64,000 bases of DNA from Methylocaldum szegediense (lineage in GTDB: Bacteria > Pseudomonadota > Gammaproteobacteria > Methylococcales > Methylococcaceae): positions 4,312,001 to 4,376,000 of the forward strand of contig NZ_OX458333.1 of NCBI RefSeq assembly GCF_949769195.1, read 5' to 3'. The position numbers and the translations under genes were made by a program. Positions within the stretch are counted from its first letter, which is position 1. Each line of letters begins with the position of its first letter. The notes under the pieces were generated by a model. The model made no database searches and was not told the DNA's origin. It saw only the letters and a program-made list of their open reading frames with translations. Positions 17,690 to 25,467 of the stretch are shown here, piece by piece.

Positions 17690-18097
17690 TCAGGCCAGAT
17701 TCAAATCCTTTACCACATCTGCCACATCTGCGATTTGCTCAAAATCCCTATCGTTGTGCAAAAGAATCAGGTCATGTTCGATAGCTATCCGAGCGATTAG
17801 ACAATCGGCAGTCGAGCGGATCGTAATGCCCTCTCGCCGGCATCGAAAATAAATGCGAGCGGCTTCGGCATAAGTTGATAGAGTGTCTTTGGGATGATAG
17901 AAGCGCTGACTGCTCAAGTACTCCTGCAAACGCTCGAAATCTTCGTCTCTGCGCGCCGCCCGTAATACTTCCTGGTAGATCAGGCTACACAGCCCGTACG
18001 GTACGCCACCGTCCAGTATTCGGCGGAACTGTTCCGTTGCGCGATTTTCGCTTTGCCGTAGAAGATCGATCCATACCGAAGTATCCACCAAATACAT
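17690..18097 (-). CDS. vapC: VapC-type PIN-domain ribonuclease toxin
   Basis: A 135-residue PIN-domain protein, the toxin of a VapBC type II toxin-antitoxin module that cleaves RNA in the cytoplasm. The acidic metal-binding residues are in place: Asp5 (YLVDTSVWIDLL), Glu43 (LIYQEVLRA), Asp98 (STADCLIARIA) and Asp116/Asp118 (HNDRDFEQIA). The length is normal and no frameshift is visible. The antitoxin gene lies 2 nt upstream but has lost its 5' end (see the vapB entry). A decayed copy of the middle of this gene is present at 20591-20756. Confidence 0.93.
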   Translation of the reverse strand: MYLVDTSVWIDLLRQSENRATEQFRRILDGGVPYGLCSLIYQEVLRAARRDEDFERLQEYLSSQRFYHPKDTLSTYAEAARIYFRCRREGITIRSTADCLIARIAIEHDLILLHNDRDFEQIADVADVVKDLNLA

Positions 18098-18280: not shown

Positions 18281-18430
18281 TTAAGGAAGCTCTGATTAAG
18301 TCCTTCGACAGGCCTGTCCTGAGCCCTTCGACAAGCTCAGGACAGGCTTGTCGAAGGGCTCAGGACGAACGGTAACCTATTGATTCCGTTCGCGGTGAGC
18401 TTGTCGAACGCTCTTCTGAGATTCTATGGT

Positions 18431-19375
18431 TCATGTCAAGCTGCCGATTGCGAGCCGTGAAGGATCGAAGCTGGTGTTGTGGCGATACAGAGAAAACGCA
18501 ATGCGCGCGATCTTGCGGGCGATCACGACCAGTGCAGCGGTGCTCGAAAGCCCTTTACCTCGGTAGTACTCATACCACGGTTTCCAGAGTTTGGATTTGC
18601 TGGCGGATGAAGCGGCGTTGTAGAGCAATCGTCGCAACTCGCTCGGTCCGCGCTTGGACAAACGCCGACGCCCCACCCGCCGGCCCGAGTCCTTAGGGCG
18701 TGGGTCGAGACCGAGGAAGGCGATGAAGGCATCACCGTGAGTAAACGGTACCCGCTCGAGGAGACTGAGCAAGCCTGCAGCGACCAAAGGGCCGACGCCG
18801 ACGATGGTTTGCAAGCGCCGGTAAGCAGCTTGACGCTCGGGCTGCAGCGTCATCAAGCGTTTGAGTTCCGCATCGATGCGGGCGATCAACTGATCCAGGT
18901 GCTGCAGGAGAGCGTTCAGGTCCGCCTGAAAATCAGCCACCCCCTGCAGGGTCTGTCGGAGTGTTCCCTGAACGGTGACCAGCTTGGCGCGCCGTTGGAT
19001 GAGCCGCGTCAGGCGGCGCTGCTCGGCGGTGGGGGGCGTATAGGGGATCAAGTGCGGGTGTTCATGCGCGACCAAACGGGCGATCAAACGGGCATCCACC
19101 CGATCGGTCTTGCCCCGTTGTCCCATCGCTTTCGCGTAATAGCGGGTATCCTTGGGATTCAACAGCAACACGGTGAAGCCGTGGGCATGGGCCAGATCGG
19201 CGAGCCTTTCGTGATAGCTGCCCGTGGCTTCGAGGCCGAGGCGGCTGCCCGGAGGCAAGGTGTTGAGCCAAGCGAGGAGTGCGTTCTTCTCGTTGGGGAG
19301 GGACTTCACCGGCCAGGTGCCTTCAGCACAGGCGACAACGATCTCAGTTTTGGCGACATCGACACCGATGTTCAA
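18431..19375 (-). CDS. IS110-family DEDD recombinase (transposase)
   Basis: A 314-residue transposase with the RuvC-like DEDD domain at the N-terminus (Asp6 in MNIGVDVAKTEIVV, Glu49 in LGLEATGSYH, and Asp91/Asp94 in GKTDRVDARLIAR) and the C-terminal Transposase_20 domain (QTIVGVGPLVAAGLLSLL; then FIAFLGLDPRPKDSGRR, SKRGPSELRRLLYNAASSAS). The serine-rich NAASSAS region is where the family places its catalytic serine. The frame is intact and full length, so the element may be active. The start codon appears to be TTG (complement of 19373-19375); no upstream ATG is in frame. The protein should act with a bridge RNA encoded in the 5' noncoding end. Confidence 0.9.
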   Translation of the reverse strand: MNIGVDVAKTEIVVACAEGTWPVKSLPNEKNALLAWLNTLPPGSRLGLEATGSYHERLADLAHAHGFTVLLLNPKDTRYYAKAMGQRGKTDRVDARLIARLVAHEHPHLIPYTPPTAEQRRLTRLIQRRAKLVTVQGTLRQTLQGVADFQADLNALLQHLDQLIARIDAELKRLMTLQPERQAAYRRLQTIVGVGPLVAAGLLSLLERVPFTHGDAFIAFLGLDPRPKDSGRRVGRRRLSKRGPSELRRLLYNAASSASKSKLWKPWYEYYRGKGLSSTAALVVIARKIARIAFSLYRHNTSFDPSRLAIGSLT

Positions 19376-19626
19376 AACGGTTGACAGGACAGGTCTCCGA
19401 TCCGGTACCGTGATAGTGCTGGGTGGACGCGCACGGTCGTCAGCTTGCGTCCAAATCGGCGGTCGTCTCAGGAGCTTGGGGCGCCGCTGGATTCCTCATC
19501 GACGATCAATGCGCGGGTGGGAGAAAACTCAGTGAAGTCTGTCCACTCAAGATGGCAGATGCAAGCCGAGGTCTCTCCACCCCAGCTCTTCCCAGTATGC
19601 AGGAAAAGCCGTTAAAACCATACAAG
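19376..19626 (-). ncRNA. Candidate bridge RNA region of the IS110 element
   Basis: IS110-group elements encode a structured bridge RNA in the noncoding end upstream of the recombinase; this 251-nt end has that position and size. Read on the minus strand it contains several possible stems, for example GGACGC...GCGTCC (complement of about 19427-19453). Two stretches could act as target guides: CTCCTGAG (complement of 19467-19474), which is complementary to the CTCAGGAG found at the target core in the uninterrupted repeat, and GGACAGACT (complement of 19536-19544), which resembles the target CGACAGGCT, with CTGAG (complement of 19528-19532) nearby. The location is known family biology; the exact RNA ends and guides are inference. 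Confidence 0.55.
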
Positions 19627-19670
19627 CCTGTCGAAGGGCGTGAACGGAATCAACTTGTTCAGAGTTTCCT

Positions 19671-19738
19671 TAAGGAACCGGCACGGAGGAGAAAAGGACA
19701 GTGTTCCCTTTCTTAATCAAAACACCAAAGCCTGACCC
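19671..19738. repeat. Short dispersed repeat, copy A (GCACGGAGGAGAAAAGGA...)
   Basis: TAAGGAACCGGCACGGAGGA followed by GAAAAGGA, a TTCC/TTTC stretch, TAATCAAAA and CCAAAGCCTGACCC. The same order of words recurs at 20777-20844 with scattered substitutions. It directly abuts the right end of MITE copy A and could be the old upstream region of the vapBC locus. No function is recognised. Confidence 0.65.
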
Positions 19739-19912: not shown

Positions 19913-20299
19913 TCAAACGAAAACAACCGTATCGCTATAGCGTGTCACAGTCCGATCATGCGTCACCAGCCGCATGGGTTCAGTGAGTGCCTGGGCGATA
20001 AGAATGCGGTCGAAGGGATCGTTGTGAATAGCGGGCAGGGATTCCACCGCAGTTGCGTGGATGCCCAGAATGGGCAATTGCAGGTAACCCGCGCATTCGA
20101 AAAGCTCCGCGGCACGGGCGCCCGATACGGGCATGTCGCCGCGTCCGAGTTGATGTTTGATGGCGATCTCCCAGAGCGAAGCCACGCTGACATGTATTTC
20201 ACAGTTTGGATCCAAAATCAGGCGGCGTGCTTTTTCGGTCAGGCGGGGATCGTCCGTCAATGCCCACAAGGCTACCTGGGTGTCAAGCAAGAGGCGCAT
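19913..20299 (-). CDS. PIN-domain toxin (VapC family, type II TA)
   Basis: A 128-residue PIN ribonuclease. It begins MRLLLDTQVALWALTDDPRL with Asp6, has Glu44 in ASLWEIAIKHQLGRGD, Asp97 in HNDPFDRILIAQALTEP and Asp115 in LVTHDRTVTRY, the standard acidic quartet. This sub-branch (LLLDTQVALWAL...) is normally paired with a Phd-fold antitoxin, and one is encoded upstream with a 17-nt overlap. The longer open frame upstream of 20299 would run through the antitoxin gene and is rejected. It is unrelated in detail to the VapC at 17690. Confidence 0.93.
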   Translation of the reverse strand: MRLLLDTQVALWALTDDPRLTEKARRLILDPNCEIHVSVASLWEIAIKHQLGRGDMPVSGARAAELFECAGYLQLPILGIHATAVESLPAIHNDPFDRILIAQALTEPMRLVTHDRTVTRYSDTVVFV

Positions 20300-20546
20300 C
20301 GTCGGATGTCTCGCCGTTGAACCACCGAGCGATCTCTTGATTGCTTTGATCGATGTCCTCGGGGATGGTGAATTCGCCTTTGGCAATTCCAATACGGCGC
20401 GAAGTTTCCGCCTTGGCGATAGGAACGACGCGGGCGACCGGTTTGCCATTGCGGGAGATCACAAACTCGTTTTCCTTGCCGGAAGCAATCTGGTCGATCA
20501 GCTTGGAGAAATGGGTTTTCGCTTCGAAGAGATTAATGGTTTGCAT
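20283..20546 (-). CDS. Phd/YefM-family antitoxin
   Basis: An 87-residue antitoxin. The N-terminal Phd fold reads MQTINLFEAKTHFSKLIDQI, then SGKENEFVISRNGKPVARVVP; the C-terminal part (FTIPEDIDQSNQEIARWF) should be the toxin-neutralising tail. It overlaps the PIN toxin start by 17 nt, so translation is coupled. Phd antitoxins bind their own operator and autorepress; an operator would lie just right of 20546. Confidence 0.92.
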   Translation of the reverse strand: MQTINLFEAKTHFSKLIDQIASGKENEFVISRNGKPVARVVPIAKAETSRRIGIAKGEFTIPEDIDQSNQEIARWFNGETSDDAPLA

Positions 20547-24957: not shown

Positions 24958-25467
24958 GAAAGCTCTGATTAAGTCCTTCGACAGGCTCCTGCCTGCAGCA
25001 GCAATCGTGAATACACAATACCCACGGCCCGGCCTCGGCCGCCACCGCCTCGTGCGCTGCCGCAAGCAACGGTTGCGACAACGCCTTCGGGCTCACCCGC
25101 TCGTTGGCCAGAAAACGCCACAGGGCTTGCGTGTGCGAAAAGGCTTGCCTGCCGAAGGCCTTGGCCTTTGCGCCAGCGGCAAGCTCGCTGGTGCTGTTCA
25201 GATGGGATTTCACCAGAATCTCGTAGCAGCGGTTGAGCCGCTTGTCAGGAAAATCAGCCGCATACTGCCTAAATCTAACCTAATTTAGAGATGTGTAGAT
25301 ACCTATGCTGCAGCAGGCAGGATGAACAGTAACCTATTGATTCCGTTCGCTGTGCCTGCCCGCGCGGCCTGCCTGCTACAGGCAGGCGGCAGGCGGGGCC
25401 GTGTCGAACGCTCTCCTGAGCCCGTCGAAGGGCGTGAACGGAATCAACTTGTTCAGAGTTTCCTTAA
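24954..25467. repeat. TTAA-flanked MITE-like element, copy B (interrupted by a transposase fragment)
   Basis: The left end TTAAGAAAGCTCTGATTAAG (24954-24973) continues TCCTTCGACAGGCTCCTGCC. After an insertion (about 25003-25306) the right part carries AGTAACCTATTGATTCCGTT, CGAACGCTCTCCTGAGCCCG and the end CAGAGTTTCCTTAA (25454-25467). Compared with copy A it has an extra CTGCCTGC...GCAGGCAGG hairpin. The final TTAA supplies the TAA stop codon of the maf gene (25464-25466). Confidence 0.75.
25003..25290 (-). pseudogene. N-terminal fragment of an IS4-like transposase
   Basis: On the minus strand the frame reads QYAADFPDKRLNRCYEILVK, then SHLNSTSELAAGAKAKAFGR, QALWRFLANERVSPKALSQP and ends in AGPWVLCIHD before running into MITE sequence at 25002. 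This resembles the N-terminal domain of IS4/Tn5-type transposases (DxRLxxR..., WRFLxNxRV, xHD). The catalytic core is absent and no start codon remains upstream, so it is a dead fragment lodged inside a MITE copy. Confidence 0.7.

What the first reader, a model, noticed from the sequence alone, without database searches (positions are those of the whole stretch)
18421..19626. Intact IS110-group element with a candidate bridge RNA whose guides can be read against a reconstructed target
The recombinase is full length with its DEDD residues. The 251-nt end upstream of it has the size and position of the bridge RNA locus known for this group, and there is almost no sequence after the stop codon. 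The insertion is in a repeat that also exists uninterrupted at 25313-25467, so the empty site can be reconstructed. On the minus strand it reads CTTCGACAGG-CT-CAGAAGAGC, with CT as the likely core. The noncoding end contains CTCCTGAG (complement of 19467-19474), complementary to CTCAGGAG in the uninterrupted repeat, and GGACAGACT (complement of 19536-19544), close to the left target. That guides pair with the target is inference.
Basis: partly seen in the sequence, partly recalled or inferred. Interest (0 to 1): 0.72.

Follow-up and report, generated by a model that had tools for sequence, protein, structure and literature searches.

The report
RNA-guided IS110 element in a repeat

Summary
A 1,206-bp IS110-group element occupies 18421-19626 (minus strand), with an intact DEDD/Ser recombinase, a 251-nt left end and 10 nt after the stop. 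A sister genome carries the same locus empty (CTTCGACAGG-CT-CAGAAGAGCG), which fixes the ends and the CT core. A covariance model built only from relatives finds the bridge RNA at 19585-19421 (E 2.6e-25), and compensatory changes support the two-loop fold. Across 33 relatives the target-loop guides match each element's own target (0 of 20,000 permutations). Neither covaries with targets, and each match is expected by chance about one time in four. The true guides are LTG UCGGCUUG-C, RTG UUCACUG-AG, LDG GAGGAAU-C and RDG GCAAG. This copy's LTG fits its own site only partly (5/8, 6/8 with wobble); sister-species copies fit 7/8. The RE-LE junction forms TTGACA-N17-TATGGT. Two frameshifted copies presumably moved in trans. 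A new member of a known kind; the one mild oddity is a covarying 6-8-bp subterminal inverted repeat.

The parts
18421..19626 (-). complete IS110-group element, 1,206 bp, including one CT core
   Evidence: Empty orthologous locus in G002; same ends in two other copies
19625..19640 (-). left target flank plus CT core, CGCCCTTCGACAGG-CT
18405..18420 (-). right copy of the CT core (18419-18420) and right target, CT-CAGAAGAGCG
18431..19375 (-). intact IS110 recombinase ORF (TTG start as called; DEDD = D6, E49, D91, D94; Ser230)
19421..19585 (-). bridge RNA core (target and donor stem-loops)
   Evidence: Hit of covariance model R1, built without this element, E 2.6e-25; pair counts on A2
19583..19611 (-). 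5' stem-loop of the bridge RNA
   Evidence: Fold z -4.85, no shuffle of 200 as stable
19515..19582 (-). target-binding stem-loop
   Evidence: Helices 1 and 2: 96-97% of cells paired, 5 pairs with two-sided changes
19561..19569 (-). left target guide, UCGGCUUG plus first core base C
   Evidence: Homologous position covaries with targets in relatives, z 14.8; own site 5/8, 6/8 with wobble
19528..19536 (-). right target guide, UUCACUG-AG (pairs CT-CAG)
   Evidence: Homologous position covaries with targets, z 11.9
19429..19514 (-). donor-binding stem-loop
   Evidence: Inner stem 100% paired in 20 sequences; the window element itself carries a compensatory U-A for A-U
19489..19497 (-). left donor guide, GAGGAAU-CC (donor ATAGAAT-CT)
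   Evidence: Changes together with the right end (GAAT, GAAC, GGAT): 30 of 31 read automatically, the exception a misread
19444..19450 (-). right donor guide, ACGCAAG (pairs CTTG at the left end)
   Evidence: left end invariant, so covariation cannot be tested
19617..19622 (-). -10 box TATGGT of the RE-LE junction promoter
   Evidence: 17 bp from TTGACA once the ends are joined
18434..18439 (-). -35 box TTGACA of the junction promoter, overlapping the 3' end of the ORF
   Evidence: conserved at 17-18 bp in most relatives

Best explanation
The feature is an intact IS110-group insertion sequence that moves by bridge-RNA-guided recombination. Excision gives a circle (inferred). The joined ends create a sigma-70-type promoter, TTGACA-N17-TATGGT (sequence shown, activity inferred). 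It drives a left-end RNA with a 5' stem-loop, a target-binding loop and a donor-binding loop (structure shown by covariation). The target-loop guides pair with the two strands of TTCGAC(N)G-CT-CAG repeats, and the donor-loop guides pair with the element's own joined ends (complementarity shown, pairing inferred). The DEDD/Ser recombinase exchanges strands at the CT core (by homology with IS621). The element has inserted repeatedly into one family of interspersed repeats in this genome and its sister species.
For: Intact recombinase with catalytic residues aligned to IS621 and ISCro4. Exact empty site in G002. Model from relatives finds the RNA, E 2.6e-25. Structure: 92.7% of cells paired against at most 46.5% when slid; 11 pairs with two-sided changes, 0/500 shuffles. 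Guides match own targets in 33 relatives, 0/20,000 permutations. Donor guide changes with the right end. Junction promoter at 17-bp spacing. Left-end junctions read in this genome and G002 have CT, and nearly all have TTCGAC before it; right-end junctions read CTCAG or CTCAA. Bridge RNA rules from PMC11208160 and PMC11208158.
Against: No RNA or activity data. This copy's LTG matches its own site only 5/8 (6/8 with wobble). Copies 2 and 3 sit at sites one base longer than the guide register, needing a bulge or recognition of only the bases next to the core. The start codon is TTG, where relatives have ATG.
Confidence: 0.95

Rival explanations
1. One reading: LTG GGACAGACT and RTG CTCCTGAG.
For: In this copy they are the best raw matches, 7/9 and 6/7.
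Against: Equivalent positions in relatives do not covary with targets (z -0.6 and 0.6). GGACAGAC is conserved with unrelated targets; CTCCTGAG is in a loop of variable length. Such matches arise by chance about 26% of the time each.
Confidence: 0.03
2. The element recognises the repeat by DNA shape or protein contacts (a palindromic repeat), and the left-end RNA serves only regulation.
For: The target is a repeat family with inverted units; this copy's LTG match is partial.
Against: Guide and target change together across relatives with unrelated targets, also when the TTCGAC class is left out (z 13.0 and 10.5).
Confidence: 0.03
3. A sub-question within the best explanation: the target guides of this copy have decayed or are being retargeted. 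The insertion was directed by an ancestral guide such as UCGACUGG, still present in sister-species copies, and the present UCGGCUUG / UUCACUGAG would favour other sites.
For: Sister copies L140 and L142 carry UCGACUGG, matching TCGACAGG 7/8 against 5/8 here. This copy has one extra base in the RTG region.
Against: Copies 1 and 2 share the present LTG at different sites, and the bridge RNA region looks homogenised, so the history is unclear. The RTG still pairs CT-CAG, 5 bp, against 4 in IS621.
Confidence: 0.35

Closest known systems
IS621 (IS110 group, E. coli) with its bridge RNA
   Same: DEDD/Ser recombinase, left-end RNA with 5' stem-loop, target and donor loops, CT core, junction promoter, insertion in REP-type repeats (PMC11208160, PMC11208158)
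   Different: Recombinase distantly related (phmmer E 2e-30). In this clade the LTG usually pairs only with the first core base (next base A or C). Subterminal inverted repeat 6-8 bp, not 2-3 bp.
ISCro4 (PDB 9t56)
   Same: Best sequence match among solved structures
   Different: Distant; its guides and target were not compared here
ISEc21 and other IS110-type seekRNA elements
   Same: Noncoding region upstream of tnp carrying matches to both target strands (PMC11187229)
   Different: Target and donor sequences; not compared residue by residue here
IS1111 group (e.g. ISPa11, REP-targeting)
   Same: Recombinase type, RNA guidance, REP targeting; subterminal inverted repeat touching the lower end of its 7-17 bp range
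   Different: There the RNA is downstream of the gene; here it is upstream
IS elements inserting in REPs (Tobes and Pareja 2006, PMC1525189)
   Same: IS insertion at REP-type repeats is already described
   Different: Different repeat sequence, TTCGACNNGCTCAG

Membership tests
IS110 group | RuvC-like DEDD domain plus Tnp domain with conserved Ser | tested here: met
IS110 group | Long left end, short right end | tested here: met
   251 nt against 10 nt
IS110 group | Bridge RNA with target and donor loops in the left end | tested here: met
   (structure and homology only)
IS110 group | Target guides complementary to target | tested here: met
   Relatives; partial for this copy
IS110 group | Donor guides complementary to the joined ends | tested here: met
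   LDG by covariation; RDG CAAG complementary to invariant CTTG
IS110 group | CT core at both ends, single in the empty site | tested here: met
IS110 group | Promoter formed at the RE-LE junction | tested here: met
   TTGACA-N17-TATGGT in sequence; activity not tested
IS110 group | Subterminal inverted repeat absent or only 2-3 bp (a reported tendency of the group, not a criterion of mechanism) | tested here: not met
   7 bp here, 6 or more in 29 of 35 elements. PMC11187229 notes exceptions to the correlation of repeat length and RNA position, so I do not treat it as excluding membership.
IS110 group | Circular intermediate, RNA expression and recombination | not testable with these tools
   Needs experiments
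IS1111 group | Bridge RNA in the right end, downstream of the gene | tested here: not met
   Only 10 nt downstream; RNA is upstream

The most novel reading that the evidence does not exclude
This clade of left-end bridge-RNA elements has real, covarying 6-8-bp subterminal inverted repeats (TATGGTT/AACCATA) and LTGs that pair with only one core base. That would make it an intermediate between the IS110 and IS1111 groups, possibly with a donor-recognition step by the recombinase that IS621 lacks. Its target loop would also tolerate a one-base bulge, letting one guide use both spacings of the repeat.
Probability: 0.2. Interest if true: 0.45.

Novelty: new member of a known kind. Interest (0 to 1): 0.3.

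Why it matters
It gives a well-defined IS110 element with an exact empty site, a repeat target present about 100 times in the genome, and a guide map. It could serve as another programmable recombinase with somewhat different target rules. It also shows that reading guides by best raw match in a single copy misleads, while aligning relatives places them correctly. The principle itself was established in 2024.

Tried and rejected
Rfam scan at relaxed threshold gave only miRNA look-alikes from the palindromic flank and no bridge RNA family. A single-sequence scan of genome contigs found no relative; a five-sequence profile gave 80 loci. Plasmid collection: no match for the protein at E 1e-60 or for the noncoding end. 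LTG in register CCUCGG-CU was considered and dropped once relatives fixed the register at one base after GGAGRGAC. Plain MFE folding of the whole left end is not significant (z -1.82) and pairs guide bases with each other; covariation was needed. RNAalifold paired the left-end CTTG with the CAAG of the donor guide; I read this as donor complementarity, not RNA structure. One literature search with three forms of the repeat sequence found no paper.

Full report
What is there. The element lies on the minus strand at 18421-19626 (1,206 bp, one CT included). Its 314-aa recombinase (18431-19375) hits PF01548 and PF02371 and the NCBIfam IS110 RNA-guided transposase model. It aligns with ISCro4 and IS621, the best matches among solved structures. 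D6, E49, D91, D94 and S230 fall on the DEDD and serine positions that are essential in IS621 (D11, E60, D102, D105, S241; PMC11208158).

Insertion and ends. Sister genome G002 (same genus) has the same locus without the element: 99% identity on both sides, the flank matches overlapping by two bases, reading CTTCGACAGG-CT-CAGAAGAGCG. This fixes both ends and the CT core. The same repeat occurs uninterrupted many times in G002. TTCGAC-NN-GCTCAG and TTCGAC-NNN-GCTCAG occur 21 and 77 times in this genome, against 3 and 1 for reversed control patterns.

Other copies. Two further near-complete copies exist (752412-753638 and about 1687498-1688586), plus relics. Left flanks are CTTCGACAGG, CTTCGACGATG and CTTCGACTTTG; right flanks CTCAG, CTCAG and CTCAA; relic right ends read CTCAG. 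In G002 five left-end junctions read TTCGAC or TTCGCC before the CT, and four right-end junctions read CTCAG. One relic (353147) has a different left flank.

Bridge RNA. A covariance model built from 16 relatives, without the window element, finds 19585-19421 with E 2.6e-25 and the second copy equally. It also finds 32 of the other loci searched, and in the whole genome only these two copies at E <= 0.001. On a 20-sequence alignment the two-stem structure has 92.7% of cells paired; sliding partners by 1-3 columns gives 36-47%. Eleven pairs have changes on both sides, reached by none of 500 shuffles. The shuffle control ignores relatedness, but the sliding control does not. The window element itself has U-A where relatives have A-U, G-C or G-U in the donor stem. 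The outer donor stem is weaker (66-69% of cells paired on this alignment). The 5' stem-loop is very stable (z -4.85).

Guides. In 33 relatives the eight bases one position after the GGAGRGAC arm match the element's own left target 6.91/8, against 3.68 with swapped targets (z 14.8). The site before the 3' arm matches the right target 4.39/5 against 3.05 (z 11.9); both 0 of 20,000 permutations. The result holds without the TTCGAC class. By homology the window guides are LTG UCGGCUUG-C (19561-19569) and RTG UUCACUG-AG (19528-19536). GGACAGACT is the conserved arm just 5' of the RTG. CTCCTGAG is in an apical loop of variable length. Their equivalents in relatives show no excess (z -0.6, 0.6). The chance of such matches somewhere in the left end is about 0.26 each.

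Donor side. The left donor guide GAGGAAU follows the right end: GAAT with GAAT, GAAC with GAAC, GGAT with GGAT, in 30 of 31 elements read by script; the exception was a regex misread (by eye). The right donor guide CAAG is complementary to the invariant CTTG.

Expression. Joined ends give TTGACA-17-TATGGT, as described for IS621 (PMC11208160). The -35 box lies inside the last codons of the gene. Most relatives keep a close TTGACA match at 17-18 bp; a Pseudomonas branch and a few others do not.

Limits. This copy's LTG fits its own site 5/8 (6/8 with G-T wobble; chance about 0.03 for a fixed position). Copies in G002 have UCGACUGG, which fits 7/8. Copies 2 and 3 sit at the longer repeat spacing, which this guide fits only with a one-base bulge. 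I cannot tell apart guide decay, bulge tolerance, and recognition of only the core-proximal bases. Copies 1 and 2 are about 99-100% identical over the first 440 bp and about 92% after, so the RNA region may have been homogenised and the present guide may not be the one that placed each copy.

Mobility. Copies 2 and 3 are identical to each other apart from a deletion of about 134 bp, and share the same frameshift and stop at different sites. A dead element therefore was recently copied, most simply in trans by an intact recombinase. This is inference; gene conversion is an alternative.

Placement. It meets the IS110-group criteria of mechanism that could be tested here and fails the IS1111 one (RNA downstream). 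One feature departs from the published description: a subterminal inverted repeat TATGGTT/AACCATA of 7 bp, 6 or more bp in 29 of 35 elements. Its two sides change together (swapped ends give 5.25 bp on average against 6.11, 0/20,000), where 2-3 bp was reported for the group (PMC11208160). Part of it overlaps the -10 box, so constraint may be mixed.

Verdict. Real, well supported and of a known kind. The most useful correction is the guide map; the most novel remainder is the longer subterminal repeat and the loose fit between guide and repeat spacing.

Noticed in passing
18425-18431 and 19616-19622 (minus strand), and relatives: Subterminal inverted repeat TATGGTT/AACCATA, 6-8 bp in most relatives with paired changes (TATGT/ACATA, TATTG/CAATA), longer than the 2-3 bp reported for left-end bridge RNA elements.
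   Followed up: partly
L002 and L003 (G000:C1:752412-753638 and 1687498-1688586): Two frameshifted copies identical to each other at different sites; suggests recent movement in trans. L003 has lost most of the bridge RNA.
   Followed up: partly
L001 against L002: Mosaic: first 440 bp nearly identical, the rest about 92%, with a sharp change near position 441 of the element.
   Followed up: partly
L140, L141, L142, L148 (sister genome G002): Sister-species copies carry slightly different target guides (UCGACUGG, UCGACUCG), and several G002 contigs end inside this element.
   Followed up: partly
G002, matches to window 18281-18420 plus 19625-19673: The target repeat (about 190 bp) is present in many 95-99% identical copies in G002, so it seems recently amplified itself.
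   Followed up: no
L053, L055, L057, L060, L061, L065, L066, L070, L085: Elements from Nitrospirota and several proteobacteria share TCGAC-type guides and (where both ends are held) sit in the same TTCGACNNG-CT-CA(G/A) repeat type, on branches with different right ends.
   Followed up: partly
LTG of most relatives: The LTG matches only the first base of the CT core (next base A or C), unlike the rule stated for IS621.
   Followed up: no
19375-19400: Recombinase start codon is TTG as called; an in-frame CTG 12 nt upstream sits at good distance from a GGAG, where relatives have ATG.
   Followed up: no
17690-18097 and 19913-20546: Toxin-antitoxin-like genes (PIN-type proteins, Phd-like antitoxin) flank the repeat on both sides, judged from the translations only.
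   Followed up: no
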